DNA from: Curvibacter sp. | Lineage (GTDB): Bacteria; Pseudomonadota; Gammaproteobacteria; Burkholderiales; Burkholderiaceae_C | Length of the DNA stretch: 17,794 nucleotides | NCBI GenBank assembly: GCA_003500955.1 | Contig: DNQP01000187.1 | Span: forward strand, 1-17,794 | Reading direction: 5' to 3' | Shown: piece after piece, positions 2,227 to 17,310 of the stretch | How positions within the stretch are numbered: position 1 is the stretch's first letter | Layout of the letters: every line of letters starts with the position of its first letter | Notes under the pieces: generated by a model | The model's database searches: none | The model's input: only the letters and a program-made list of their open reading frames with translations | What the model was told of the DNA's origin: nothing | Program-made: the position numbers and the translations under genes

Positions 2227-3462
2227 TCAGGCCGCCTTGCGCTGCGGCACGGCCGCCGGGTGGCCGGCGTAGTAGTCCATGATGGCCTGCACGCCCGAGC
2301 CGGCCAGCTTGACGCCCGCCAGCTTCAGACCCATCTCGCAGGCCGCCACGGTGCCGATCAGCGTCAGGTCGTTGCTGTCGCCCAGGTGGCCGATGCGGAA
2401 CATGCGGCCCTTGACCTTGCCCAGCCCCGTGCCCAGCGAGCAGTCGAAACGTTCGTAGATGATCTTGCGCACCGCGTCGGCGTCCACGCCCTCGGGCGTC
2501 ATCACGCCGGTGAGGATGGGCGAGTAGACACCGGCGTCGGCGCACTGGATGGGCAGGCCCCAGGCGTTGACCGCGGCGCGCACGCCCGCGGCCCAGCGCT
2601 GGTGGCGTGCCAGCACGGCGTCCATGCCTTCACCCAGCAGCATGTCGGCGGCCTCGCTCAGGCCGTACATGAGGTTGGTGTTGGGCGTGTAAGGCCAGTA
2701 GCCCGTCTTGTTCATCTCGATGATCTCGTCCCAGGCCCAGAAGCTGCGCGGCAGCTTGGCCGTCTTGCTGGCCTCGATGGCCTTGGGCGAAAGCGCGTTG
2801 AAGCTCATGCCCGGCGGCAGCATCAGCCCTTTCTGCGAGCCGCTGATGGAGACGTCCACACCCCACTCATCGTGGCGGTAGTCCGCGCTGGCCAGGCCCG
2901 AGATGGTGTCCACCAGCAGCAGGGCCGGGTGCTTGGCCGCGTCGATGGCCTTGCGCACGGCGGCGATGTTGCTGGTCACGCCGGTCGAGGTCTCGTTGTG
3001 CACCACGCAGACGGCCTTGATGGCATGGCCCGTGTCGGCCTTGAGGCGCTGCTCGATCAGGTCGGCCTGCACACCGCGGCGCCAGCTCGCGGGCACGCCG
3101 TTGTCGGTGCCGGCCAGGGCCAGCACCTCGGCCTTCAGGCCCAGGCGCGTGGCCAGGCGGTGCCAGAGGAAGGCGAAGTGCCCGGTCTCGTACATCAGCA
3201 CGTGGTCGCCGGGGCTCAGGGTGTTGGAGAGCGCCGCTTCCCAGGCACCGGTGCCCGAGGCCGGGTAGATCATGACCGGGTGCTTGGTCTTGAAGATCTT
3301 CTGGATATCGGCCAGCACCTTGAGGCCGAGCACGCCGAACTCGGGGCCGCGGTGGTCGATGGTGGGCAGGCTCATGGCGCGCAGCACGCGCTCGGGCACG
3401 GGCGAGGGGCCCGGAATCTGCAGGAAATGGCGGCCGGTGGGGTGGAAGTTGGTAGTCAGCAT
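2227..3462 (-). CDS. Serine/alanine-glyoxylate aminotransferase family protein (class V, PLP-dependent)
   Basis: A 411-residue fold-type I aminotransferase closely resembling methylotroph serine-glyoxylate aminotransferases. The N-terminal signature QIPGPSPVPERVLRAM then TIDHRGPEF is present. PASGTGAWEAALSNTL (67-82) forms the phosphate-binding turn, HNETSTGVTSNI lies at 155-166, Asp185 should contact the PLP nitrogen, and SISGSQKGLMLPPG places the PLP lysine at Lys211. FRIGHLGD (355-362) holds the arginine expected to bind the substrate carboxylate. The family transfers an amino group from serine or alanine to glyoxylate, giving glycine. It is divergent from a GntR regulator and a 2-hydroxyacid dehydrogenase, which could supply glyoxylate. 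No clear Shine-Dalgarno precedes the ATG at 3462. The leftward promoter (TTGACA at 3513-3518) overlaps an operator-like site, so control by the adjacent regulator is likely. Serine, alanine and other donors cannot be told apart from sequence alone. Confidence 0.9.
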   Translation of the reverse strand: MLTTNFHPTGRHFLQIPGPSPVPERVLRAMSLPTIDHRGPEFGVLGLKVLADIQKIFKTKHPVMIYPASGTGAWEAALSNTLSPGDHVLMYETGHFAFLWHRLATRLGLKAEVLALAGTDNGVPASWRRGVQADLIEQRLKADTGHAIKAVCVVHNETSTGVTSNIAAVRKAIDAAKHPALLLVDTISGLASADYRHDEWGVDVSISGSQKGLMLPPGMSFNALSPKAIEASKTAKLPRSFWAWDEIIEMNKTGYWPYTPNTNLMYGLSEAADMLLGEGMDAVLARHQRWAAGVRAAVNAWGLPIQCADAGVYSPILTGVMTPEGVDADAVRKIIYERFDCSLGTGLGKVKGRMFRIGHLGDSNDLTLIGTVAACEMGLKLAGVKLAGSGVQAIMDYYAGHPAAVPQRKAA

Positions 3463-3489
3463 GGTTCAACAACAGAGAAAGGTGAGTGG

Positions 3490-3518
3490 ATTTTTTGCAT
3501 ACAAAAGTTGTTTGTCAA
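3490..3518 (-). promoter_or_regulatory. Leftward sigma-70-like promoter for the aminotransferase
   Basis: On the minus strand a perfect TTGACA (3518 down to 3513) is followed after 17 bases by AAAAAT (3495 down to 3490, four of six to TATAAT). The candidate GntR operator at 3493-3506 overlaps the spacer and the -10, as expected for repression. Confidence 0.5.
3493..3506. promoter_or_regulatory. Candidate GntR operator, site 1
   Basis: TTTTGCATACAAAA is a near-perfect dyad (one mismatched pair) of the A/T-flanked GTATAC type typical of FCD-family GntR operators. It lies just upstream of the rightward -35 and over the leftward -10. It pairs with a related site at 3555-3568, centre to centre 62 bp, close to six helical turns. 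Confidence 0.6.
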
Positions 3519-3536
3519 GCAGAAAGACCCTAAAAT
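3508..3536 (+). promoter_or_regulatory. Rightward sigma-70-like promoter for the GntR gene and the dehydrogenase
   Basis: TTGTTT (3508-3513), a 17-base spacer, then TAAAAT (3531-3536). Transcription would start near 3543, about 36 bases before the GntR ATG. Operator-like site 2 falls just downstream of the start and site 1 just upstream of the -35. Confidence 0.55.
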
Positions 3537-3554
3537 CGCCAGAAATCAATCATT

Positions 3555-3568
3555 TTTTGAATACAAAC
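3555..3568. promoter_or_regulatory. Candidate GntR operator, site 2
   Basis: TTTTGAATACAAAC matches site 1 at 12 of 14 positions, and both are preceded by extra Ts. It lies between the predicted transcription start and the GntR start codon, where a bound repressor would block its own transcription. Confidence 0.55.
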
Positions 3569-3578
3569 GGAAAAGAAC

Positions 3579-4271
3579 ATGGCCGAGATCCTGAGCCTGC
3601 CTGGGGCTGTCCTGCACGGGCAGGTGGCGCAACGCCTGCGCCAGATGCTGGTGGAGGGGCTGATCGCCCCCGGCGCCAAACTCAACGAGCGCGAGTTGTG
3701 CGAGCAGCTCAAGATCTCGCGCACGCCGCTGCGCGAGGCCATCAAGACCCTGGCTGCCGAGGGCCTGGTGGAGCTGCTGCCCAACCGCGGCGCTTTTGCG
3801 GTGGCCTTGAGCGAAACCGACATCCTCAACACCTTCGAGGTCATGGCCGGGCTCGAGGGCCTGTCGGGTGAGCTGGCGGCGCAACGTGTCACGCCCGAGG
3901 AACTGGCCGAGATCGAGGCCATGCACTACGAGATGAAGGCCGCCTACGCGCGGCGCGATCTCTCGGCCTACTACCGGCTCAACGCCGCCATCCACCGCGC
4001 CTTCAACGCCGCAGCGCGCAACCCCGTGCTCACCGCCACTTACAACCAGGTCAACGCGCGCCTGCAGGCCCTGCGCTTCCGTTCCAATCAGGACGGCGAG
4101 AAATGGGCCCGTGCCATGCAGGAACACGACCGCATGATCGAGGCGCTGCAAAAGCGTGACGGCGCCGCCCTGCGTGCCGAACTGGTGGCCCATCTGGGCC
4201 ACAAGCGCGACGTGGTGGTTGAACAGATGCATACCGCCCACGCCGCAGCGCAGGCGCAAGAGAAACACTGA
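3579..4271 (+). CDS. GntR-family transcriptional regulator with FCD effector domain
   Basis: A 230-residue regulator of the FadR/FCD branch. Residues 12-75 form the winged helix-turn-helix, including LNERELCEQLKISRTPLREA and the wing ending PNRGAFAVAL. Residues about 82-215 are the all-helical FCD ligand domain. Its usual metal-site residues are visible as Asn135 and His139 (LNAAIHRAF), His183 (EHDRMIEAL) and His205 (AHLGH), so it probably binds a metal-chelated carboxylate. Family members commonly repress hydroxyacid and organic-acid genes and are released by the substrate. Here the gene sits between the aminotransferase (divergent) and the large dehydrogenase, whose ATG follows this stop codon after one base. 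Two similar operator-like sequences in the divergent promoter suggest that it controls both transcripts and itself. The effector is inferred to be a 2-hydroxyacid or 2-oxoacid, possibly glycolate or glyoxylate. Confidence 0.93.
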   Translation: MAEILSLPGAVLHGQVAQRLRQMLVEGLIAPGAKLNERELCEQLKISRTPLREAIKTLAAEGLVELLPNRGAFAVALSETDILNTFEVMAGLEGLSGELAAQRVTPEELAEIEAMHYEMKAAYARRDLSAYYRLNAAIHRAFNAAARNPVLTATYNQVNARLQALRFRSNQDGEKWARAMQEHDRMIEALQKRDGAALRAELVAHLGHKRDVVVEQMHTAHAAAQAQEKH

Positions 4272-4272
4272 C

Positions 4273-7200
4273 ATGAACGCTCCCCTGCCTCTGAACCTCT
4301 CTGCCTCCTCGCCCGAGGCGACCTACGACGCCGTCTCCCGCATCAGCAACGAGGTCGCCGGCCGCCTGGCCGCCCGCCTGCGTAGCGAAACCAAGGGCGA
4401 GGTGCTGTTCGGCGCCGCCGACCGCGGCCGCTACGCCACCGACGCGTCCATCTACCAGGTCATGCCCGTGGGTGTGTTCCTGCCGCGCGACGCCGCCGAC
4501 GTGCGCCTGGCCATCGACATCTGCCGCAGCTTGAGCGTGCCCATCGTGCCGCGCGGTGGCGGCACCAGCCAGTGCGGCCAGACCGTGGGCGCGGGCCTGG
4601 TCATCGACCACACGAAATACATGCGCAACATCCTCGACGTCAACGTCGAGCAGCGCACCGCCAAGGTCGAGCCCGGTCTGGTGCTGGACCACCTGAACGC
4701 CGCGCTCAAGAAGCACGGCCTCTGGTACCCGGTGGACGTGTCCACCAGCGCGCAGGCCACGCTGGGCGGCATGGCCGGCAACAACTCCTGCGGCAGCCGG
4801 TCGATTGCCTACGGCAATATGGTGCACAACGTGTTGGGCGCCCAGGCCTGGCTGCCCGATGGCGAGCTACTGAATTTCGGCCGCTACGACCAAGCCGTGG
4901 GCCGCGTGAAACAGATCGGGGACTTCGTGCGCGGCCTGGCCGGCCTGCACCGTGACGAGATCGAGGCGCGTTGGCCCAAGGTGCTGCGCCGCGTGGCCGG
5001 CTACAACCTGGACATCTTCCACAACCAGAACGAGAAGCCGTACACGGGCGACGGCTCGGTCAACCTGGCCCACCTGCTGATCGGCAGCGAGGGCACGCTG
5101 GCGCTCACGCGTTCCCTGTGCCTGCAGCTCAGTGAGCTGCCGCGCGCCAAGGTGCTGGGCGTGGTGAACTTCCCCACGTTCTATAAAGCCATGGACAGCG
5201 CCCAGCACATCGTCAAGCTGGGTCACAACATGCAGGGTGGGGCGCTCACGGCCGTGGAGCTGGTCGATCGCACCATGATCGAGCTTTCGCTGCAGAACCC
5301 GGCTTTCGCGCCCACCATCCGCACGGCGCTGGCCCCGGCCATCAAGGGCGGCCAGCCCGAGGCCATCCTGCTGGTGGAGTTCTCGGGCCAGAGCAAGGCC
5401 GAGATCGCGCCGAAGATCAAAGAGCTGGTGGAGCTGATGGGCGACCTGGGATTACCGGGCAGCGTGGTGGAGATGATCGACGACGCCCCGCAGAAAAACC
5501 TGTGGGAAGTGCGCAAGGCCGGCCTCAACATCATGATGAGCCTGCGCGGCGACGGCAAGCCCGTGAGCTTTATCGAAGACTGCGCCGTGCCGCTGGAGCA
5601 CCTGGCCGAGTACACCGACGCCCTCACGCAGGTCTTTGCCAAATACAGCAGCCGCGGCACCTGGTACGCTCATGCGTCCGTGGGCACGCTGCATGTGCGC
5701 CCCATCCTGGACATGCGCAAGGACGGCGCGTCCAAGATGCGCGCCATTGCCGAAGAAGCCAGCGAACTGGTGCGCAAGTACAAGGGCGCCTACAGCGGCG
5801 AGCACGGCGACGGCCTGTGCCGTGGCGAGTGGATCGAATGGCAGTTCGGCCCGCGCATCACCGAAGCCTTTGCCCAGATCAAGCAGCAGTTCGACCCGCA
5901 GGGTCTGCTGTGCCCGCAGCGCATGATCAGGCCGCCGCGCATGGACGACACCACGCTCATGCGCTATCCGCCCGGCCACAAGCAGCGCGTGGTGCCCATC
6001 CAGCCCGTGCTGGACTGGAGCGCCTGGAACGTGCACAACAACCCGGTGACCGAAGAAACCACCGCCCCCGGCACCGGTGACGACCCGGCCCAGGGCCTGG
6101 CCATGCATGTGGAGATGTGCAACAACAACGGCCACTGCCGCAAGTTCGACGCCGGCACCATGTGCCCGAGCTACCGCGTCACCCGCGACGAACAGCACCT
6201 CACGCGCGGCCGTGCCAACACCCTGCGCCTCGCGCTCAGCGGCCAGATCGACGGGCTGCGCGGCGAGGACGCGCTGGCCAGCGAGGAAGTGCGCGAGGCC
6301 ATGGATTTGTGCGTCTCCTGCAAGGGCTGCAAGCGTGACTGCCCCACGGGCGTGGACATGGCCAAGCTCAAGGTCGAGTTCCTGCAGCACTACAAGGCCA
6401 AGCATGGCCACACGCTCAAGGACAAGCTCGTGGGCCAGCTGCCCGACTATGCGCGCCACGCCGCGAAGATCGCCCCCGTGCTCAACCTGCGCGACAAGAT
6501 CCCGCTGATGGCCCAGCTGAGCGAAAAGCTCTTTGGCTTTTCCGCGAAGCGCAGCCTGCCTCAGTGGAAGAGCCAGCACTTCTTCAACACACCCGTGCAG
6601 AGCGTCAGCCGCGAGGAGGTGCTGACCGCTGCCAAGCCGGTGGTGCTCTTCGTCGACACCTTCAACGGTTACTTCGAATCCGAGAATGCCCACGCCGCCC
6701 TGCAGGTGCTGCAGGCCGCGGGCTACGCCGTGCACATCGCCAGCAAGACCACGGACGACGGCAAGCACCTCTGCTGCGGCCGCACCTTCCTCTCCGCCGG
6801 CATGGTGGACCAGGCCAAGGTGAAAGCGCGCGAGGTGGTGGAGAGCCTCTTGCCCTTTGCCGAAAAAGGCATCGCCATCGTCGGCCTGGAGCCGAGTTGC
6901 TTGCTCACCCTGCGTGACGAATTGCTGGTGATGGGCCTGGGCGAGGGTGCACAGGCTATCGCCAAGAGCGCGCTGCTGTTCGAGGAGTTCCTGGCCCGCG
7001 AGGCTAAGGCTGGCCAGCTGGAAATCTTCCGCGCCAAGCTCAAGCCCGTGAGTCAGCCCGTGCTGCTGCACGGCCACTGTCACCAGAAGGCCTTCGCCGC
7101 CGTCACGCCCGTGATGGAAGTGCTCTCACTGATCCCCGGCGCCAAGCCGGAGCTCATCGAGTCCAGCTGCTGCGGCATGGCCGGCAGCTTTGGCTACGAG

Positions 7201-7380
7201 GCCGAGCACTTTGATGTGTCCATGCAGATGGCGGAAGCCGCGCTGTTGCCGGCCGTGCGCGCCAAGGCCGATGCTATTGTGGTAGCGGACGGCACCAGTT
7301 GCCGGCACCAGATCCACGATGGCACGCAGCGCGAGGCGGTGCATGTGGCGAGGCTGCTGGCCGCACAGCTGGGCGGATGA
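4273..7380 (+). CDS. Fused FAD-binding and Fe-S/CCG-domain 2-hydroxyacid dehydrogenase (YdiJ / GlcD-GlcF-like)
   Basis: A 1035-residue protein, the usual size for this fusion family. The N-terminal half is a PCMH-type FAD domain: PRGGGTSQCGQTVG begins near 93 and GGMAGNNSCGSRSIAYGN follows near 170. The FAD-oxidase C-terminal lobe follows, with HASVGTLHVRP near 466 and SGEHGDGLCRGEW near 508. A ferredoxin-like segment carries C616 N-N-N-G-H C622 with C631-P, and C680-x2-C683-x2-C686-x3-C690-P, consistent with 4Fe-4S clusters. Two CCG domains follow (LCCGR near 834, SCCGMAGSFGYE near 965). The architecture is GlcD plus GlcF in one chain; characterised relatives oxidise D-2-hydroxyglutarate, D-lactate or glycolate and pass electrons toward the respiratory chain. 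The start at 4273 is fixed by one-base spacing from the GntR stop. The divergent aminotransferase favours a glyoxylate-producing substrate, but D-2-hydroxyglutarate or D-lactate remain possible. Confidence 0.93.
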   Translation: MNAPLPLNLSASSPEATYDAVSRISNEVAGRLAARLRSETKGEVLFGAADRGRYATDASIYQVMPVGVFLPRDAADVRLAIDICRSLSVPIVPRGGGTSQCGQTVGAGLVIDHTKYMRNILDVNVEQRTAKVEPGLVLDHLNAALKKHGLWYPVDVSTSAQATLGGMAGNNSCGSRSIAYGNMVHNVLGAQAWLPDGELLNFGRYDQAVGRVKQIGDFVRGLAGLHRDEIEARWPKVLRRVAGYNLDIFHNQNEKPYTGDGSVNLAHLLIGSEGTLALTRSLCLQLSELPRAKVLGVVNFPTFYKAMDSAQHIVKLGHNMQGGALTAVELVDRTMIELSLQNPAFAPTIRTALAPAIKGGQPEAILLVEFSGQSKAEIAPKIKELVELMGDLGLPGSVVEMIDDAPQKNLWEVRKAGLNIMMSLRGDGKPVSFIEDCAVPLEHLAEYTDALTQVFAKYSSRGTWYAHASVGTLHVRPILDMRKDGASKMRAIAEEASELVRKYKGAYSGEHGDGLCRGEWIEWQFGPRITEAFAQIKQQFDPQGLLCPQRMIRPPRMDDTTLMRYPPGHKQRVVPIQPVLDWSAWNVHNNPVTEETTAPGTGDDPAQGLAMHVEMCNNNGHCRKFDAGTMCPSYRVTRDEQHLTRGRANTLRLALSGQIDGLRGEDALASEEVREAMDLCVSCKGCKRDCPTGVDMAKLKVEFLQHYKAKHGHTLKDKLVGQLPDYARHAAKIAPVLNLRDKIPLMAQLSEKLFGFSAKRSLPQWKSQHFFNTPVQSVSREEVLTAAKPVVLFVDTFNGYFESENAHAALQVLQAAGYAVHIASKTTDDGKHLCCGRTFLSAGMVDQAKVKAREVVESLLPFAEKGIAIVGLEPSCLLTLRDELLVMGLGEGAQAIAKSALLFEEFLAREAKAGQLEIFRAKLKPVSQPVLLHGHCHQKAFAAVTPVMEVLSLIPGAKPELIESSCCGMAGSFGYEAEHFDVSMQMAEAALLPAVRAKADAIVVADGTSCRHQIHDGTQREAVHVARLLAAQLGG

Positions 7381-7559: not shown

Positions 7560-8324
7560 ATGAAGATTGACGTGATCGTCCGGACGTTGCTGATATGTGG
7601 GCTCGGTTGGTTCCAGAGTGCGGGGGCTGGCCTGAACGAGGCCAAGACGAACTTCACGAAGATTTACGACATCCCGCCCACCGTAACATTCGAAGAGAGC
7701 CCGTTCGACGGCATTTACTTGCTGCGCAATGGCTCCGGAGCGGTCAACCTTATTGATGAGGCCGTCACCATCAACGGGTACGGTATGGGTTGGCGTGTTC
7801 GGGACGATATCAAGGCGACAAACTTCAAAGGCCTGTCTGCGCCTGAAGCGAAGGCTCTGCAGCAGGTGCTGCGCAAGAACCTCAAATCGAACTGGTTGGT
7901 GAAGTCCGATAAAGCGGGCGGCAGCAAGTCGGTGATCGTGATCTCGGCGCCCAACTGCGGGTATTGCCAGGAGCTCGAGAAAGATCTGCGTAAGCACGGT
8001 GCTGCGCTTGGGGCCACGGTCTATATCGTGCCGACCCTGCTCGGCCAAGGCGCTGATCGATTCACCAATGCCGTCTTGTGCGGTCCGAACCCCGATGCGG
8101 TGTGGAAGCAAAGCCTCAGCCAGCGCGGGAATTTTCCCCAATCGAATCAGGAATGCCAGAAGTCCAGGTGGGCAGAGATGGTCTTTGAGCACACCTTCGA
8201 GCGTGTCAACGCGAACTCGCGCCGCATCAGTACCCCCGCGATCATCCGGGCCGACGGCTCGGTGGTGTTCGGCTGGAGTCCCAACGCCACCCTAGCCGAG
8301 ACACGGCAGCGCTTGGGTCTGTGA
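7560..8324 (+). CDS. DsbC/DsbG-like periplasmic thiol-disulfide isomerase
   Basis: A 254-residue exported protein. Residues 1-23 are a signal peptide (VIVRTLLICGLGWF core, likely cleavage after SAGA). Residues about 25-115 match the position of the DsbC N-terminal dimerisation and linker region. The thioredoxin-fold domain carries the DsbC-type active site C133-G-Y-C136 in ISAPNCGYCQELE and the cis-proline loop STPAIIRADG (Pro226). Cys174 and Cys199 match the spacing of the second, structural disulfide of DsbC. Such enzymes reshuffle wrong disulfides in periplasmic proteins and are kept reduced by DsbD. GAGGA seven bases upstream supports the start. Base composition is clearly lower in G+C than the genes on either side, and the gene stands alone, which suggests acquisition. 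DsbC-like proteins also occur on conjugative elements, but no other element gene is present here. Confidence 0.82.
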   Translation: MKIDVIVRTLLICGLGWFQSAGAGLNEAKTNFTKIYDIPPTVTFEESPFDGIYLLRNGSGAVNLIDEAVTINGYGMGWRVRDDIKATNFKGLSAPEAKALQQVLRKNLKSNWLVKSDKAGGSKSVIVISAPNCGYCQELEKDLRKHGAALGATVYIVPTLLGQGADRFTNAVLCGPNPDAVWKQSLSQRGNFPQSNQECQKSRWAEMVFEHTFERVNANSRRISTPAIIRADGSVVFGWSPNATLAETRQRLGL

Positions 8325-11387: not shown

Positions 11388-12272
11388 TCAGCGCGCGCCC
11401 TCGATCAGGCGTTCCAGCCGTTCGATGCGGTGGCGCTGCGCGGTGGTGATGGCGTAGAAATGTTCCTGCAGCTGCGTGGACTGGCCCACGCGCACCAGGC
11501 TGCCGGTGCGCAGCTCGTCCTGCACCACCACCTCGGGCAGCAGGGCGAGCCAGCCGCTGTCGCGCGCGATCAGACGCAGCATGGCCATGTCGTCCACCTC
11601 GGCGCGCAGCCTCGGCTTGGCGCCGGCCGTGAGGCACAGCGCGTCGAACTGCGCGCGCAGCGCATGGCGCGGGCCGGGCAGGGCGATGTCGATGCCGTCC
11701 AGGTCTTCGGGGATGCGCAGGTTGCGGCCGGCCCAGGCGCTGGCCGGGCCCACGACCGAGATGGCCTGGCTGCCCAGGAAGCGGCAGTGCAGGGCGCGCT
11801 CCGGGTCCGAGGTCACGGCCTCGTTGGCCAGCACCACGTCGAGCTGGTGCTGCAGCAGCCGCGCGAGCAGGCCTTCGAGCTGGCCGGACTCCAGCGTGAG
11901 CACCACCGAGGGATCGGCCAGCAGGGGACGGATCCAGTTCTCCTGGTAGTTGCGCGAGAGCGTGGACACGCTGCCCATGCGCAGGCGCTCCATGCCCTCG
12001 CTGCGGCCCTGCAGCCGCCCCAGCAACTCCTGGCCCAGGCCGAAGATGTTCTCGGCATAGGCCAGCACCAGGTGCCCGGTCTCGGTCAGCACCAGGCGGC
12101 GGCCATCGCGCTCGAACAGGGCCTCGCCCAGCCGCTCCTCCAGCTGGCGGATCTGGGCCGAGAGCGCGGACTGCGAGATGTGCAGGGCCTGGGCCGCGCG
12201 CGTCAGGTGCCCTTCCTTGGCCACGCGCCAGAAATAGAGCAGGTGGTGGAAATTGAGCTGTTCGAGGTTCAT
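11388..12272 (-). CDS. NhaR-like LysR regulator divergent from the dab operon
   Basis: A 294-residue LysR-type regulator. Its N-terminus NFHHLLYFWRVAKEGHLTRAAQALHISQ, then LSAQIRQLEERLGEALFER, resembles the NhaR subgroup. Residues about 90-290 form the effector domain (MGSVSTLSRNYQENW at its start; SGWLALLPEVVVQDEL near 247). ATG at 12272 is used because the upstream in-frame extension (to 12431) crosses the divergent promoter and has no family similarity. Two inverted repeats between this gene and dabB (12274-12290 and 12295-12322) are the obvious binding sites. LysR regulators such as CbbR and CcmR govern inorganic-carbon genes in autotrophs, so a DIC- or pH-linked effector is reasonable but unproven. 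NhaR itself answers to sodium and pH in E. coli, which may matter because DabB belongs to the Mrp/NuoL ion-transporter family. Confidence 0.92.
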   Translation of the reverse strand: MNLEQLNFHHLLYFWRVAKEGHLTRAAQALHISQSALSAQIRQLEERLGEALFERDGRRLVLTETGHLVLAYAENIFGLGQELLGRLQGRSEGMERLRMGSVSTLSRNYQENWIRPLLADPSVVLTLESGQLEGLLARLLQHQLDVVLANEAVTSDPERALHCRFLGSQAISVVGPASAWAGRNLRIPEDLDGIDIALPGPRHALRAQFDALCLTAGAKPRLRAEVDDMAMLRLIARDSGWLALLPEVVVQDELRTGSLVRVGQSTQLQEHFYAITTAQRHRIERLERLIEGAR

Positions 12273-12369: not shown

Positions 12370-13914
12370 ATGAACACCCCAGCCTTCCTTTTGCTCGCCT
12401 GCACCCTGGCCCCGGCGGCCTTCATGCTCACGGTGGCGCTGCGCGCCTGGTTGGCGCCGCAGGCCGTGGCTCCCCTCTGGCAGCACTACCGCCGCCTGGC
12501 CGGCCTGGCCCTGCTGCCGGCGCTGGCCAGCCTGGTGGCGCAATGGAGCGGCGCCGCCCCCGCGCTGCCCGGCAGCCCCTGGCTGGCCGCCGGGCCGCTG
12601 AGCGCGGCCGTGGCCCTGCTGGTGCAGCTGCTGGGTACGGTGATCGGCGCCTTCTCGGCGCGCTACCTTGAAGGCGAGCCGGCGCAGGCGCGCTACATCG
12701 CGGCCCTGGCCGGTGTGCTGGGCGCGGTGCACCTGCTGCTGCTGGCCGATCACTGGCTGCTGCTGATCGCCGCCTGGGCGGCCGTGGGCCTAGTGATGCA
12801 GACCCTGCTGTGCTTCTATCCCGAGCGTCCCTTCGCCCAGCTGGCCGCGCACAAGAAGCGCCTGGCCGATCTGCTGGCCTGGGCCCTGCTGGCCGTGGCC
12901 GCGGGCCTGGCCTGGTCCGAGGTGGGCAGCGGTTCGCTGTCGGACCTGGCGCGCCATCTGGCCGAGGGCCAGGCCTCGGCGGCGCTGCAGTGGAGCGCGG
13001 TCTGTCTGGTGGCGGCGGTGATCCTGAGCACGGCGCTGCTGCCCGTGCACGGCTGGCTGATCCAGGTGATGGAGGCGCCCACGCCCGTGTCCGCGCTGAT
13101 GCATGCGGGTGTGGTCAACCTCGGGGGTTATGTGCTGATCCGCTTCGCGCCGCTGCTGGAGGCGGCGCCGGCAGCGCGCTGGCTGCTCGTGGTCTTCGGC
13201 CTGGGCACGGCCCTGCTCGCGGGCCTGGTGATGCTCACGCGCATCAGCATCAAGGTGCGGCTGGCCTGGTCCACGGTGGCGCAGATGGGCTTCATGGTGC
13301 TGGAATGCGGCCTGGGCCTGTACACGCTGGCCGCGCTGCACCTGATCGGCCATTCGCTCTACAAGGCGCATGCCTTCCTCTCGGCCTCCAGCGTGGTGGC
13401 CGACACCCGCCTGCAGGATCTGCACGGCCGTCACACCCTGGCGCCTGCCAGCCTGTGGCTGGCGCCTCTGCTGGCGCTGGCGCTGGTGGGCGCGGTGGCG
13501 CTGACGCTGCCCGGGGCCAGCTGGCCCTGGTGGTGGAGCGTGGTGCTGGCCCTGGCCTGGGCGCCGCTGCTGTGGCTGCCGCGCGCGAGCGACCCGGTGC
13601 AGGCCCGCCTGCGCTGGAGCCGCCTGGGCGCAGGCCTGGGCATGGTGCTGGGCCTGGCGACGCTGGCGGCCGCCGTGCACCTGCTTCCCCTGGGCGTGCA
13701 CGACCAGCCGAACCAGGCTGCGGGCGTGGTGGCCGCGCTGGGCATGGGCGTGATGTACCTCGCGCTGCTCACCCTGCAGTGGCGTGCGCCCCTGCTCGAG
13801 GGCTGGCGGCGCTGGAGCTACGCCGGCTTCTATGTGGACGAGGTCTACACCCGCGTGGCGCTGCGCGTCTGGCCCACGGCCTGGGCCCCGAACGCCACCA
13901 AGTCCGCCCGCTGA
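12370..13914 (+). CDS. dabB: DabB, NuoL/MrpA-like membrane subunit of the inorganic-carbon accumulation complex
   Basis: A 514-residue membrane protein of the Proton_antipo_M family. The hallmark LLPVHGWLIQVMEAPTPVSA (223-242) then LMHAGVVNLGGYVLIR is followed by ISIKVRLAWSTVAQMGFM (292-309) and HLIGHSLYKAHAFL (324-337). It is taken as DabB rather than a complex I subunit because the next gene encodes DabA (DUF2309) and no nuo or mrp genes are nearby. In the DAB system this subunit is thought to let ions flow down their gradient to power the CO2-hydrating DabA. Aligned by eye to E. coli NuoL, channel residues Glu144 and Lys229 correspond to Ala137 and Ser220, while Lys332 (SLYKA) is kept. The ribosome site is weak. 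Divergent LysR control through the inverted repeats just upstream is likely. Confidence 0.9.
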   Translation: MNTPAFLLLACTLAPAAFMLTVALRAWLAPQAVAPLWQHYRRLAGLALLPALASLVAQWSGAAPALPGSPWLAAGPLSAAVALLVQLLGTVIGAFSARYLEGEPAQARYIAALAGVLGAVHLLLLADHWLLLIAAWAAVGLVMQTLLCFYPERPFAQLAAHKKRLADLLAWALLAVAAGLAWSEVGSGSLSDLARHLAEGQASAALQWSAVCLVAAVILSTALLPVHGWLIQVMEAPTPVSALMHAGVVNLGGYVLIRFAPLLEAAPAARWLLVVFGLGTALLAGLVMLTRISIKVRLAWSTVAQMGFMVLECGLGLYTLAALHLIGHSLYKAHAFLSASSVVADTRLQDLHGRHTLAPASLWLAPLLALALVGAVALTLPGASWPWWWSVVLALAWAPLLWLPRASDPVQARLRWSRLGAGLGMVLGLATLAAAVHLLPLGVHDQPNQAAGVVAALGMGVMYLALLTLQWRAPLLEGWRRWSYAGFYVDEVYTRVALRVWPTAWAPNATKSAR

Positions 13915-13945
13915 GACCCCGACGATGAACACCCTGGAGTCCGTG

Positions 13946-16504
13946 ATGAACCTCGACGAAACGACCCTACTCGCACCGCAGCCCACGGCGGCCCCGCTCG
14001 ACGCCCAACGGGCCCGCGCCATCGACGCGGCCTGCGCCCAAGCCTGCGAGGCCATCGCCCCGGCTTGGCCGCTGGACCGCGCGATCGCCGTCAACCCGCA
14101 CTGGGGGCGCATCGGTCGCCCGGTGCGCGAGGTGGCGGCGCGCATGGCGGTGCTGGGCGGCATCTGTGTATTCCCGGCGCGCGACTACCTGCAGCAGGCC
14201 TGGGACAGCGGCCGCGTGAGCGAGGCGGACCTGGAGGCCGCGCTGCGCACCCTGCCCGCGGCGCAGCTCGCCCAGCTCACGGGGGCCGACTGTGTGGCGG
14301 CGCTGCGCGCGCCTCTGCCCGCGCACCAGCTGCCGCTGCTGATCGACGTGCTCGACGACGACCCCGACCGCGACACCCGCCTGTCCTGGCGCCAGGCCGT
14401 CACGCACCAGGTCAGCCAGACCTGCGCGGCCTACTTCGACGAGCACCAGGCCGACTGGCAGCCCGAGCAGGCGCAGGGGCTCTACGCCTTCTGGCGCGAC
14501 ACGCTGACGCACGACCACGGCATCGGCCTGCTCATGGGCCTGCCCCATCTGGGCCGCGCGCTGCACGCGCTGCCCGCCACGCGGCAGGACGCCGAGCGCT
14601 GGGTGTTGCAGCGCCTGGGCCTGCCCGAGGCGGTGTGGGCGGACTACCTGGAGTCGGTGCTGCTCACCGTCAATGGCTGGGCCTCGTGGTGTGCCTACCT
14701 CGGCTGGCAGGCCAAGCTGGAGGACCGAAGCGACACGCACCTGCGCGAGCTGCTGGCGATCCGCCTGGCCTGGGGTGCCATCCTGCTCGAATGCAAGGAC
14801 GACGACAGCGCGCACCGTGCCTTCGCCAACCTGCAGGACGAATGGCGCCACGCTGGCGAACACCTGCAGCGCGCAGCCCAGGACCTGCTGGTGGACGAAG
14901 TCTGGCAGCAGGCCCTGGAACTGGCGTACCAGCGCGTGCTGTCGCGCAAGCTGCTGGCCGTGGGCGGCACGCGTCCGGTTACGGGCGTCGAGGGCATCGA
15001 AGTGCAGGCCGCCTTCTGCATCGATGTGCGCAGCGAGCCGCTGCGCCGCGCGCTGGAGGCCGCCTGGCCCGCCATCCAGACCGTGGGTTTTGCCGGCTTC
15101 TTCGGCCTGCCCGTGGCTTACACGCCGCTCGCGACCGAGGCCCGCCGGCCGCAGCTGCCGGGCCTGCTGGCGCCGGCCATCGAGGTGCAGGACCGGGTGC
15201 GCCCGGCGGTACCTGCGAAGCGCGACGAGACGGCCGATGCCGCACTCGCACGCCGCCAGCGTTTTGCCTGGTCCGAGCAATGGGCGGCCAGCAGCCGCTG
15301 GCCCAGCGCGGCCTATTCCTTCGTCGAGGCCGCGGGCCTGGGCTATTTGAGCAAGCTCGGTGAATGGTTCCGGCCCTCGACGCGCGAGCGCGAACGCAGT
15401 GACCAGAGTGGCCTGCCCGCGCGCTACCGGCCGGTCTGTCGGCCCATGCTGATGGGCCTGGACCTCGAGGCCAAGGTGGCGCTGGCGCAGCGCGTGCTGC
15501 ACGCCATGGGCCTGGACCACGGGCTGGCGCCCTTGGTGCTGCTGGTGGGCCACGGCAGCCAGAGCGCCAACAACGCCCACGCTGCGGCGCTGGACTGCGG
15601 CGCCTGCTGCGGCCAGACCGGCGAGGTCAATGCGCGCGTGCTGGCCCAGCTGCTCAACGACCCGGCGGTGCGCGCCGGCCTGAGCGCGCAGGGCTTGGTG
15701 ATCCCCTCGGCCACGGTCTTCGTCGCGGCGCTGCACAACACCACGACCGACGAGATCGAGGGCCACGACCTGGACCTGCTGCCCACCCAGGCGCGCGAGC
15801 GCTGGCAGCGGCTGCAGCCCGTCTTCGCCCAGGCCTGCGACCAGGTGCGGCGCGAGCGCGCGCCGCTGCTGGGCCTGGACCCCGCCGCACCCCACGAGGC
15901 GCTGTACGAGCAGTTGCGCCGCCGCGCCAACGACGGCGCGCAGACCCGGCCCGAGTGGGGGCTGGCGGGCAACGCGGCTTTCATCATCGGGCCGCGCTGG
16001 CGTACGCTGGGCGCGGTACTCGAAGGCCGCAGCTTCCTGCACGACTACGAGGCGGCACGCGACACCGACGGCAGCGTGCTGGAGCTGCTGATGACCGCGC
16101 CCATGCTGGTCACGCACTGGATCAACTGGCAGTACCACGCCTCGACCTGCGAGCCGGCGCGCCTGGGCAGCGGCAACAAGGTGCTGCACAACGTGGTCGG
16201 TGGTACGCTGGGCGTGTTCGAGGGCAACGGCGGCGACCTGCGCATCGGCCTGTCGGAACAGTCGCTGCACGACGGCCAACGCTGGGTGCACGAGCCGCTG
16301 CGCCTGACGGTGGTGATCGACGCGCCGGCGCCGGCCATCGAGGCGGTGATCGGCAAACACGCGGTGGTGCGCCAGTTGCTGGACAATGGATGGCTGCACC
16401 TGTGGCGCTACGACGGTGATCAGCTCCTGCGCTACGCCTCAGGGCATTGGCAGGAACTGGAGACCGGATGTCGCGCTACCGAGGGCAAAGCATCGCCCTA
16501 CTGA
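13946..16504 (+). CDS. dabA: DabA (DUF2309), beta-carbonic-anhydrase-like catalytic subunit
   Basis: An 852-residue cytoplasmic-side protein of the DUF2309/UPF0753 family. The N-terminus contains the conserved IAVNPHWGRIGRPVREVAAR block. The active-site set described for DabA is complete: Cys358 and Asp360 in AAFCIDVRSEPLRRAL, His536 in LLVGHGSQSANN, and Cys551 in ALDCGACCGQ. Spacing matches the H. neapolitanus protein (C351, D353, H524, C539). With DabB it is proposed to convert CO2 to bicarbonate unidirectionally, trapping carbon in the cell. ATG at 13946 is preferred because GGAG lies six bases upstream; an in-frame ATG at 13925, ten bases after the dabB stop, adds seven residues but has no clear ribosome site. 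The C-terminal WINWQYHASTCEPARLGSGNK block is also typical. The next gene starts inside its last 37 bases. Confidence 0.93.
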   Translation: MNLDETTLLAPQPTAAPLDAQRARAIDAACAQACEAIAPAWPLDRAIAVNPHWGRIGRPVREVAARMAVLGGICVFPARDYLQQAWDSGRVSEADLEAALRTLPAAQLAQLTGADCVAALRAPLPAHQLPLLIDVLDDDPDRDTRLSWRQAVTHQVSQTCAAYFDEHQADWQPEQAQGLYAFWRDTLTHDHGIGLLMGLPHLGRALHALPATRQDAERWVLQRLGLPEAVWADYLESVLLTVNGWASWCAYLGWQAKLEDRSDTHLRELLAIRLAWGAILLECKDDDSAHRAFANLQDEWRHAGEHLQRAAQDLLVDEVWQQALELAYQRVLSRKLLAVGGTRPVTGVEGIEVQAAFCIDVRSEPLRRALEAAWPAIQTVGFAGFFGLPVAYTPLATEARRPQLPGLLAPAIEVQDRVRPAVPAKRDETADAALARRQRFAWSEQWAASSRWPSAAYSFVEAAGLGYLSKLGEWFRPSTRERERSDQSGLPARYRPVCRPMLMGLDLEAKVALAQRVLHAMGLDHGLAPLVLLVGHGSQSANNAHAAALDCGACCGQTGEVNARVLAQLLNDPAVRAGLSAQGLVIPSATVFVAALHNTTTDEIEGHDLDLLPTQARERWQRLQPVFAQACDQVRRERAPLLGLDPAAPHEALYEQLRRRANDGAQTRPEWGLAGNAAFIIGPRWRTLGAVLEGRSFLHDYEAARDTDGSVLELLMTAPMLVTHWINWQYHASTCEPARLGSGNKVLHNVVGGTLGVFEGNGGDLRIGLSEQSLHDGQRWVHEPLRLTVVIDAPAPAIEAVIGKHAVVRQLLDNGWLHLWRYDGDQLLRYASGHWQELETGCRATEGKASPY

Positions 16505-17310
16505 CTCAACATGGCAAGGAGCGGGTGATCGCCCCCGCGCTCGAACCCGCGCTGGACTGCCGCGTGCAGCTCGTGACGGGCTATGACACCGACCAGCTCG
16601 GCACGTTTACGCGGGACAAGCCGCGTCCGGGCACGCAGCTGGAGGCGGCCCGGCGCAAGGCCCGCGTCGGCATGACGCTCTCGGGCTTGCCCGTCGGCTT
16701 GGCCAGCGAGGGCAGCTTCGCGGCCGATCCCTGGACCGGCATGTTCGCCTGGAACGTGGAGATGGTGGTACTGCTCGACGACCGGCTCGGTCTCGAGGTG
16801 GTGGGCATGGCCCAGGGCGCGGCGCGCAGCGCGCAGCTGCAGACGGCGGACTGGGCCGCGCTGGAGCAGTATGCGCAGCAGCAGGGCTTTCCCGAGCACC
16901 AGCTGGTGCTGCGGCCCGAGGGCCCGGACGATCCGCGCCTGGACAAGGGGCTGGCCGACTGGGCCGCGCTGCGCGCGAGCTTCGAGCGCTGCCGCGCCGA
17001 GGCGGCCAACGGCCAGGTCTATGCGGAGAACGATCTGCGCGCCCACGCCAATCCCACGCGCATGCAGCGCATCGCCGAGGCCACGCGCGATCTGCTGCAA
17101 CGCCTGCAGACCGCCTGCCCCGCCTGCGATGCGCCGGGCTACGGCCTGGTCGGGCGCGAGCCCGGTCTGCCCTGCCGCGATTGCGGCAGCCCCACGCAGA
17201 TCTACCGTGCCGAGGTGCTGCAGTGCCCGGCCTGCCAACACCGCGAGGTGCGGCCGCGCAGCGACCGGCAGTTTGCCGATGCAGCGCAGTGCGCGCACTG
17301 CAATCCCTGA
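16468..17310 (+). CDS. DUF6671-like protein with C-terminal four-CxxC zinc-ribbon region, coupled to dabA
   Basis: A 280-residue soluble protein with no signal peptide or membrane segment. Residues 1-190 form a conserved-looking domain of unknown function (ALLTQHGKERVIAPAL near 10, VTGYDTDQLGTFTRDKPRPG at 36-55, ARRKARVGM, LASEGSFAADPW). The motif ENDLRAHANPTRMQRIAE (187-204) precedes a cysteine-rich tail. That tail carries four CxxC pairs at 217/220, 236/239, 253/256 and 275/278, enough for two zinc-ribbon or rubredoxin-like knuckles. It resembles proteins I recall as DUF6671; the name is less certain than the description. The ATG at 16468 has GGAG five bases upstream and overlaps dabA by 37 bases, so it is the third cistron of the dab operon. 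No enzymatic function can be assigned. A metal-related, assembly or regulatory role for DAB is inferred from context only. Confidence 0.85.
   Translation: MSRYRGQSIALLTQHGKERVIAPALEPALDCRVQLVTGYDTDQLGTFTRDKPRPGTQLEAARRKARVGMTLSGLPVGLASEGSFAADPWTGMFAWNVEMVVLLDDRLGLEVVGMAQGAARSAQLQTADWAALEQYAQQQGFPEHQLVLRPEGPDDPRLDKGLADWAALRASFERCRAEAANGQVYAENDLRAHANPTRMQRIAEATRDLLQRLQTACPACDAPGYGLVGREPGLPCRDCGSPTQIYRAEVLQCPACQHREVRPRSDRQFADAAQCAHCNP

What the first reader, a model, noticed from the sequence alone, without database searches (positions are those of the whole stretch)
16468..17310. An uncharacterised CxxC-rich protein is the third cistron of a DAB inorganic-carbon operon
The gene starts 37 bases inside dabA with its own GGAG site, so it is made in step with DabA. 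It carries four CxxC pairs, suggesting bound zinc, and an N-terminal domain of unknown function. DabA is a zinc enzyme that would be wasteful or harmful if mis-metalated or uncoupled. A zinc chaperone, maturation factor or gate for DAB is a testable role. The characterised DAB system is described as two proteins, so this may be an undescribed accessory component.
Basis: partly seen in the sequence, partly recalled or inferred. Interest (0 to 1): 0.8.

Follow-up and report, generated by a model that had tools for sequence, protein, structure and literature searches.

The report
Shared partner of bicarbonate importers
The gene behind the carbon-dioxide uptake genes dabB and dabA encodes a protein of unknown function that, in other bacteria, sits just as tightly beside an unrelated bicarbonate importer and looks like a nucleotide-handling enzyme, so it is probably a general helper or regulator of bicarbonate supply rather than a zinc chaperone for one enzyme.

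Summary
In detail: window 16468-17310 is an intact gene, its ATG lies 37 bases inside dabA behind a GGAG, and it has four CxxC pairs. It is DUF6671 (PF20376). The DabA-specific zinc-chaperone reading is unlikely. In a 349-genome order sample, 38 genomes carry DUF6671; 24 have DabA, but 53 of 77 DabA genomes lack DUF6671. Of the other 14, 10 carry SbtA, an unrelated Na+/bicarbonate importer with no zinc site that I know of, and DUF6671 repeatedly abuts sbtA. The swap occurs within the window's own genus: dabA-DUF6671 in four genomes, sbtA-DUF6671 in one, an intact DUF6671 behind a dabA remnant in another. A quick tree needs at least 10 Dab/Sbt partner changes. The AlphaFold model shows an ITPase/HAM1/YjjX-like core, an inserted ATP-grasp B-lobe and a C-terminal CxxC ribbon, which one of 53 diverse members truly lacks. 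Residues found in every member lie in core and lid. Best reading: a nucleotide-binding, perhaps nucleotide-hydrolysing, accessory protein that adjusts inorganic-carbon import, similar in role (not sequence) to SbtB. A low-CO2 housekeeping enzyme is the main rival. No paper in the library holds 'DUF6671' or 'PF20376'. Function remains untested.

The parts
16468..17310 (+). DUF6671 gene, 280 aa; third cistron after dabB-dabA
   Evidence: PF20376 E 5.2e-39, 134.7 bits vs cut-off 23.8
16459..16462 (+). GGAG ribosome-binding-like site, 5 bases before the ATG, inside dabA
16468..16504 (+). 37-base overlap of dabA end and DUF6671 start, in different frames
16468..16821 (+). ITPase/HAM1/YjjX-like core, residues 1 to about 118, with conserved TxHxK (13-17), DTDxLGTF (40-47), R53, K64, SEG (80-82), E98, D104
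16822..17040 (+). insert, about residues 119-191, ATP-grasp B-lobe-like; K160 in all 53 diverse members
17041..17115 (+). last core helix, about residues 192-216
17116..17307 (+). zinc-ribbon-like tail with four CxxC pairs (codons at 17116-17127, 17173-17184, 17224-17235, 17290-17301)
   Evidence: zinc itself not tested
13925..16504 (+). dabA (PF10070)
   Evidence: start codon by inspection
12370..13914 (+). dabB (Proton_antipo_M; NCBIfam PRK08168 NuoL-like)
11388..12272 (-). divergent LysR-type regulator, a recurrent neighbour of the dab or sbtA cassette (LysR cluster in 37 of 80 named-genome loci)

Best explanation
DUF6671 is a soluble accessory protein of dissolved-inorganic-carbon (DIC) supply that is not tied to one importer: it is encoded with DAB in some lineages and with SbtA in others. 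It combines an ITPase/HAM1/YjjX-like nucleotide-enzyme core, an ATP-grasp B-lobe lid inserted in that core, and (almost always) a C-terminal zinc-ribbon-like tail. Most likely it binds, and perhaps hydrolyses, an adenine-type nucleotide, and the nucleotide state decides whether it acts on the importer or the pathway it serves; the ribbon would be a structural or docking module. Shown: gene, operon, repeated linkage to two unrelated importers, partner swapping, fold of core and insert (predicted models), invariant core residues. Inferred: nucleotide identity, hydrolysis, physical contact with DabA/DabB/SbtA, regulatory role.
Confidence: 0.45

Rival explanations
1. Low-CO2 housekeeping enzyme: it processes a nucleotide or metabolite that builds up when bicarbonate-dependent biosynthesis stalls, and is only co-regulated with importers without touching them.
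For: Enzyme-like invariant core; HAM1/YjjX proteins sanitise ITP/XTP (my knowledge). Recurrent neighbours in the 80 named-genome loci (duplicates not removed) include dihydroorotase-type (17 loci), Sua5 (14), BioA-type aminotransferase (6), PurK (5), BioD-type (4), PurE (3), several of which belong to CO2/HCO3- using pathways (one representative each checked by Pfam; the pathway link is my knowledge). Intact in G503 behind a decayed dabA and in loci near neither importer.
Against: Overlap or near-abutment with dabA and sbtA is tighter than mere co-regulation needs. FBA, PurE, PurK and Sua5 may simply be a conserved gene string into which it fell. IlvD (16 loci), and isocitrate dehydrogenase seen by eye, do not fit the theme.
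Confidence: 0.27
2. DabA-specific zinc chaperone, maturation factor or gate.
For: Four CxxC, 37-base overlap with dabA; DabA2 is a zinc enzyme (PMC13144422, passages); 24 of 38 genomes have DabA.
Against: 53 of 77 DabA genomes lack it. It abuts sbtA in other loci. Kept after dabA decay. A CxxC-free member. mpsAB rescues a CA-free E. coli without its third gene mpsC (PMC6689103, passages; mpsC was not compared with DUF6671 here).
Confidence: 0.07
3. Passenger of a mobile or LysR-controlled DIC cassette; linkage reflects shared transfer and regulation only.
For: Patchy: 2 of 150 in the phylum sample (the window's genome included), 7 of 21 within the genus. LysR genes are frequent neighbours (37 of 80 loci).
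Against: Linked to two unrelated importers with at least 10 swaps; strongly conserved core residues.
Confidence: 0.1
4. Zinc-ribbon nucleic-acid-binding regulator of the cassette.
For: C-terminal CxxC tail; weak, non-significant sequence similarity to RPB12 ribbons (E 0.14).
Against: The residues found in all 53 diverse members are in core and insert, not the tail; one member lacks the tail. A LysR regulator is already present.
Confidence: 0.06

Closest known systems
Pfam PF20376 (DUF6671)
   Same: The protein is a member well above the cut-off.
   Different: The Pfam match starts at residue 65 and misses the conserved TxHxK and DTDxLGTF motifs; the name states no function.
ITPase/HAM1 (RdgB) and YjjX
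   Different: Sequence similarity near the limit (P 2.6e-4, prob 42%; nothing with single sequences); carries an ATP-grasp-like lid and a ribbon; activity unknown.
ATP-grasp B subdomain (cyanophycin synthetase, biotin carboxylase, carbamoyl-phosphate synthetase, PurK)
   Different: The whole-protein Pfam scan finds no ATP-grasp domain; no profile match to PurK beyond controls.
SbtB, the PII-like partner of SbtA
   Same: Soluble and encoded with a bicarbonate importer; SbtB binds adenyl nucleotides and has apyrase activity (PMC10991534, passages).
   Different: No P-II domain. In 15 of 23 Sbt-linked loci a PII-like gene is also present, in 8 none was found.
MpsC of S. aureus and hneap_0908 of DAB1
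   Same: Third genes of DAB-type operons (PMC6689103 passages; PMC13144422 introduction).
   Different: hneap_0908 is described as a small transmembrane protein and mpsC as dispensable; I made no sequence comparison with either.

Membership tests
DUF6671 (PF20376) | score above the curated cut-off | tested here: met
   134.7 bits vs 23.8
DAB complex subunit | present wherever DabA is | tested here: not met
   24 of 77 DabA genomes carry it
DAB complex subunit | physical contact with DabA/DabB | not tested
   the structure tool takes single chains only
ITPase/HAM1/YjjX superfamily | fold | tested here: met
ITPase/HAM1/YjjX superfamily | sequence homology | tested here: inconclusive
   HAM1 profile P 2.6e-4, prob 42%; single RdgB/YjjX not significant
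ITPase/HAM1/YjjX superfamily | NTP pyrophosphohydrolase activity | not testable with these tools
   needs an assay
ATP-grasp enzyme | B-lobe fold | tested here: met
ATP-grasp enzyme | complete ATP-grasp domain | tested here: inconclusive
   no ATP-grasp Pfam domain found; the rest of the protein's core matches ITPase-like folds
zinc ribbon protein | paired CxxC motifs | tested here: met
   four pairs, invariant in 32 aligned sequences, window included; cysteines in 50-51 of 53 diverse members: L149 truly lacks them, L036 only because my gene call stops short
zinc ribbon protein | bound zinc | not testable with these tools
   needs metal analysis
CobW/COG0523-type zinc chaperone | P-loop GTPase domain | tested here: not met
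   Pfam scan gives only DUF6671 and a sub-cut-off Chorion_S16 match
SbtB/PII | P-II domain (PF00543) | tested here: not met
   no such match; ITPase-like fold instead

The most novel reading that the evidence does not exclude
DUF6671 is a previously unrecognised class of inorganic-carbon regulator: an ITPase-fold nucleotide hydrolase with an ATP-grasp lid that reads the adenylate state and gates whichever DIC importer the cell owns, DAB or SbtA, doing by another fold what the apyrase-active SbtB does for SbtA.
Probability: 0.28. Interest if true: 0.8.

Novelty: new variant of a known kind. Interest (0 to 1): 0.62.

Why it matters
How DAB-type complexes are regulated and kept from futile cycling is named as a key question in the DAB2 structure paper (PMC13144422, introduction). 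A single soluble protein that swaps between DAB and SbtA points to a shared control step for two unrelated importers and gives direct tests. It may also matter for efforts to move DIC uptake into other hosts, which as far as I know have used importer genes without it.

Tried and rejected
Rejected: a DabA-only zinc chaperone (see rival). A universal DAB subunit (24 of 77 DabA genomes). PII/SbtB membership (no domain). Chance ORF (1,994 homologues at E <= 0.001 among 7,999 scored candidates; strong conservation).

Led nowhere: hhalign against single RdgB, YjjX and PurK; profile alignment and hmmsearch against single E. coli proteins; profile comparison of the insert and of the tail with 17 profiles (best P 0.077 for the insert, 0.048 for the tail); PDB sequence search (best E 0.14). 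A first crude gene caller mis-called antisense ORFs and its script failed; replaced. The C-terminal tail was not modelled or searched alone. An Actinobacteria sample could not be drawn. Literature: 'DUF6671' and 'PF20376' returned 0 papers; the DabA/DabB/DUF2309 search listed 30 of 335, of which I opened PMC13144422 (introduction, passages); the Mps search listed 20 of 707, of which I opened PMC6689103 (passages); the SbtB search listed 7 of 7, of which I opened PMC10991534 (passages); 'DUF2309/SbtA/LysR' listed 15 of 45, none opened.

Limits of the counts. Gene calls in loci are my own codon-usage calls. Of 118 loci, 10 gave no called DUF6671 protein (L005, L015, L029, L070, L113, L114, L115, L117, L118, L123) and drop out of the residue counts and tree; they stay in the locus labels. 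Sub-cut-off matches were dropped: G156 (DUF6671), G316 (DabA), G159 and G392 (SbtA). The 80 named loci are the best 80 of 566, so biased to close relatives. Some named loci carry the same or nearly the same contig (L023-L027; probably L053, L059, L060, L063), hence counts on 90%-identity representatives; of the 91 tree rows, window/L002 and L004/L194 are near-duplicates, and L004/L194 are labelled Dab on a dabA tail alone. L058 and L074 show only part of dabA. One of the 200 or more label shuffles also reached 10 changes. G503 has 8% contamination, so its SbtA genes are less sure. One of the 11 genus SbtA matches is a fragment (G496). Labels such as BioA for an Aminotran_3 protein, BioD for AAA_26, dihydroorotase for Amidohydro_1 are my reading of Pfam hits.
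Full report
What is there. Window 16468-17310 (+) encodes a 280-aa protein whose ATG lies 37 bases inside dabA and follows a GGAG by 5 bases. It is DUF6671, PF20376, E 5.2e-39. Upstream are dabA (PF10070) and dabB, and a LysR gene diverges from dabB. The host genome (3.3 Mb, 308 contigs, 89% complete, probably a metagenome bin) has no match to the RuBisCO large subunit and one beta-carbonic anhydrase, so here DAB probably serves a heterotroph's bicarbonate need, as far as an incomplete genome can say. The genus is probably Hylemonella: the same-genus genome G506 has a contig of the same length (522,727) as a named Hylemonella record carrying the locus.

How common and where. In an even sample of 150 genomes of the phylum the family is in 2, the window's genome included. 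In 349 genomes of the order it passes the cut-off in 38, DabA in 77 and SbtA in 104; matches below the cut-off were dropped (G156; G316; G159 and G392). DabA is in 24 of 38 DUF6671 genomes and 53 of 311 others (p 6e-9). SbtA alone is 16 of 38 vs 88 of 311 (p 0.06). DabA or SbtA is 34 of 38 vs 132 of 311 (p 1e-8). Among genomes without DabA, SbtA is in 10 of 14 vs 79 of 258 (p 0.003). These p values ignore phylogeny and include the window's own genome.

Neighbourhood. Of the 38 order genomes, 20 have DabA within 8 kb of DUF6671 and 5 others have SbtA within 8 kb (the window's genome counted). Four more have one of them on the same contig at 10-16 kb (G237 DabA; G195, G238, G406 SbtA). Of 80 loci from named genomes (the best 80 of 566 relatives, so biased to close relatives), 38 are Dab-type, 16 Sbt-type, 11 neither and 15 cut by contig ends; L004 counts as Dab on a dabA tail only. 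Over 91 tree rows: 39 Dab (L004 and L194 on the tail only), 20 Sbt, 15 neither, 16 cut, 1 both. Dab-type rows other than the window: 37 of 38 same strand, 28 of 38 also within 150 bases; Sbt-type: 14 of 20 same strand, 7 of 20 also within 150 bases, with DUF6671 behind sbtA in some and in front of it in others. The sbtA label was confirmed by Pfam on one representative (PF05982, E 2e-112) and PII on another; the order-wide SbtA search used the Pfam model itself. Among 23 Sbt-linked loci, 15 also hold a PII-like gene and 8 do not. In four of those eight (L113, L115, L142, L193) the order is LysR< sbtA> DUF6671> with the last two genes abutting, DUF6671 standing where sbtB usually stands (the usual place is my knowledge).

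Partner swap inside one genus. In 21 genomes of the window's genus DUF6671 is in 7. G000, G506, G510 and G511 have DabA next to it and no SbtA match. G505 has no DabA match, and its sbtA stop lies 15 bases before the DUF6671 start. G503 has an intact DUF6671 preceded only by a dabA tail (70 codons, 70% identical) and two SbtA genes elsewhere, in a genome with 8% contamination. In G498 DUF6671 is cut by a contig end and neither importer was found in an 80% complete genome. SbtA is in 11 of 21 genomes (one a fragment) and in none of the 4 with DabA above the cut-off. On a quick maximum-likelihood tree at least 10 Dab/Sbt changes are needed on 59 rows; 200 label shuffles need 17 on average, minimum 10, so partners cluster but have swapped often.

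What is conserved. In 53 members chosen at under 70% identity from 108 proteins, the residues found in all 53 are T41, D42, G45, T46, F47, K64, E81, G82, E98, D104, P142 and K160; the CxxC cysteines are in 50-51 of 53. L149 ends without any CxxC, and no other frame just downstream supplies one; L036 lacks them only because my gene call stops short, its tblastn match running to residue 280. This puts the working part in the nucleotide-enzyme-like core and lid, with the ribbon as an add-on.

Other neighbours. Dihydroorotase-type amidohydrolase (17 of 80 loci), IlvD (16), Sua5 (14), BioA-type (6), PurK (5), BioD-type (4) and PurE (3) recur (duplicates not removed; one representative each checked by Pfam). 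Several belong to pathways that consume bicarbonate or CO2 (my knowledge), which keeps the housekeeping rival alive; the FBA-PurE-PurK-Sua5 string may simply be a common gene order.

Mechanism. The best-supported reading is a nucleotide-responsive accessory protein of DIC supply. SbtB offers the closest working analogy: it binds adenyl nucleotides, hydrolyses ATP and ADP to AMP, and partners SbtA (PMC10991534, passages). DUF6671 is not related to it by any test made here. For DAB-type operons third genes are on record (hneap_0908 in DAB1, PMC13144422 introduction; mpsC, reported dispensable, PMC6689103 passages), but the searches for DUF6671 and PF20376 found no paper.

Verdict. Observation confirmed; the DabA zinc-chaperone reading is unlikely; a wider and more interesting pattern takes its place. 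Function is unproven.

Noticed in passing
L004:3338-4353 and L194 (G503): dabA reduced to about its last 70 codons in front of an intact DUF6671; in L004 the next called gene upstream is an opposite-strand ORF of 1031 aa: a natural dabA loss.
   Followed up: partly
L074:4635-6794: dabB, then only the first 290 or so codons of dabA matched, then DUF6671: another truncated or broken dabA before DUF6671, or an assembly fault.
   Followed up: no
L126 and L127: DUF6671 near a LysR gene and what looks by eye like a SulP-type transporter, a possible third importer partner; SbtA lies about 16 kb away on the same contig.
   Followed up: no
L129/L198, L131, L055: A recurrent neighbourhood of some of TerB, Na/Ca exchanger, TerC and Usp genes around DUF6671 in loci away from dabA.
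   Followed up: no
L023-L027; L053, L059, L060, L063: Same-looking DUF6671 contigs filed under different genera (Ralstonia, Burkholderia, Rhodoferax, Paraburkholderia; Pollutimonas, Luteimonas, Azoarcus): probable assembly contamination or very recent transfer.
   Followed up: no
window 2227-7380: Class-V aminotransferase (-) beside a GntR/FCD regulator and a 1035-aa FAD-linked oxidase with Fe-S/CCG domains (+), with a TctC receptor nearby: looks like glyoxylate/2-hydroxyacid metabolism.
   Followed up: no
window 7560-8324: 254-aa protein with a weak thioredoxin-like match below the Pfam cut-off and a CGYC motif, DsbC-like by eye.
   Followed up: no
PF20376 model: The Pfam model's match omits the first 64 residues, which hold two of the most conserved motifs of the family.
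   Followed up: yes
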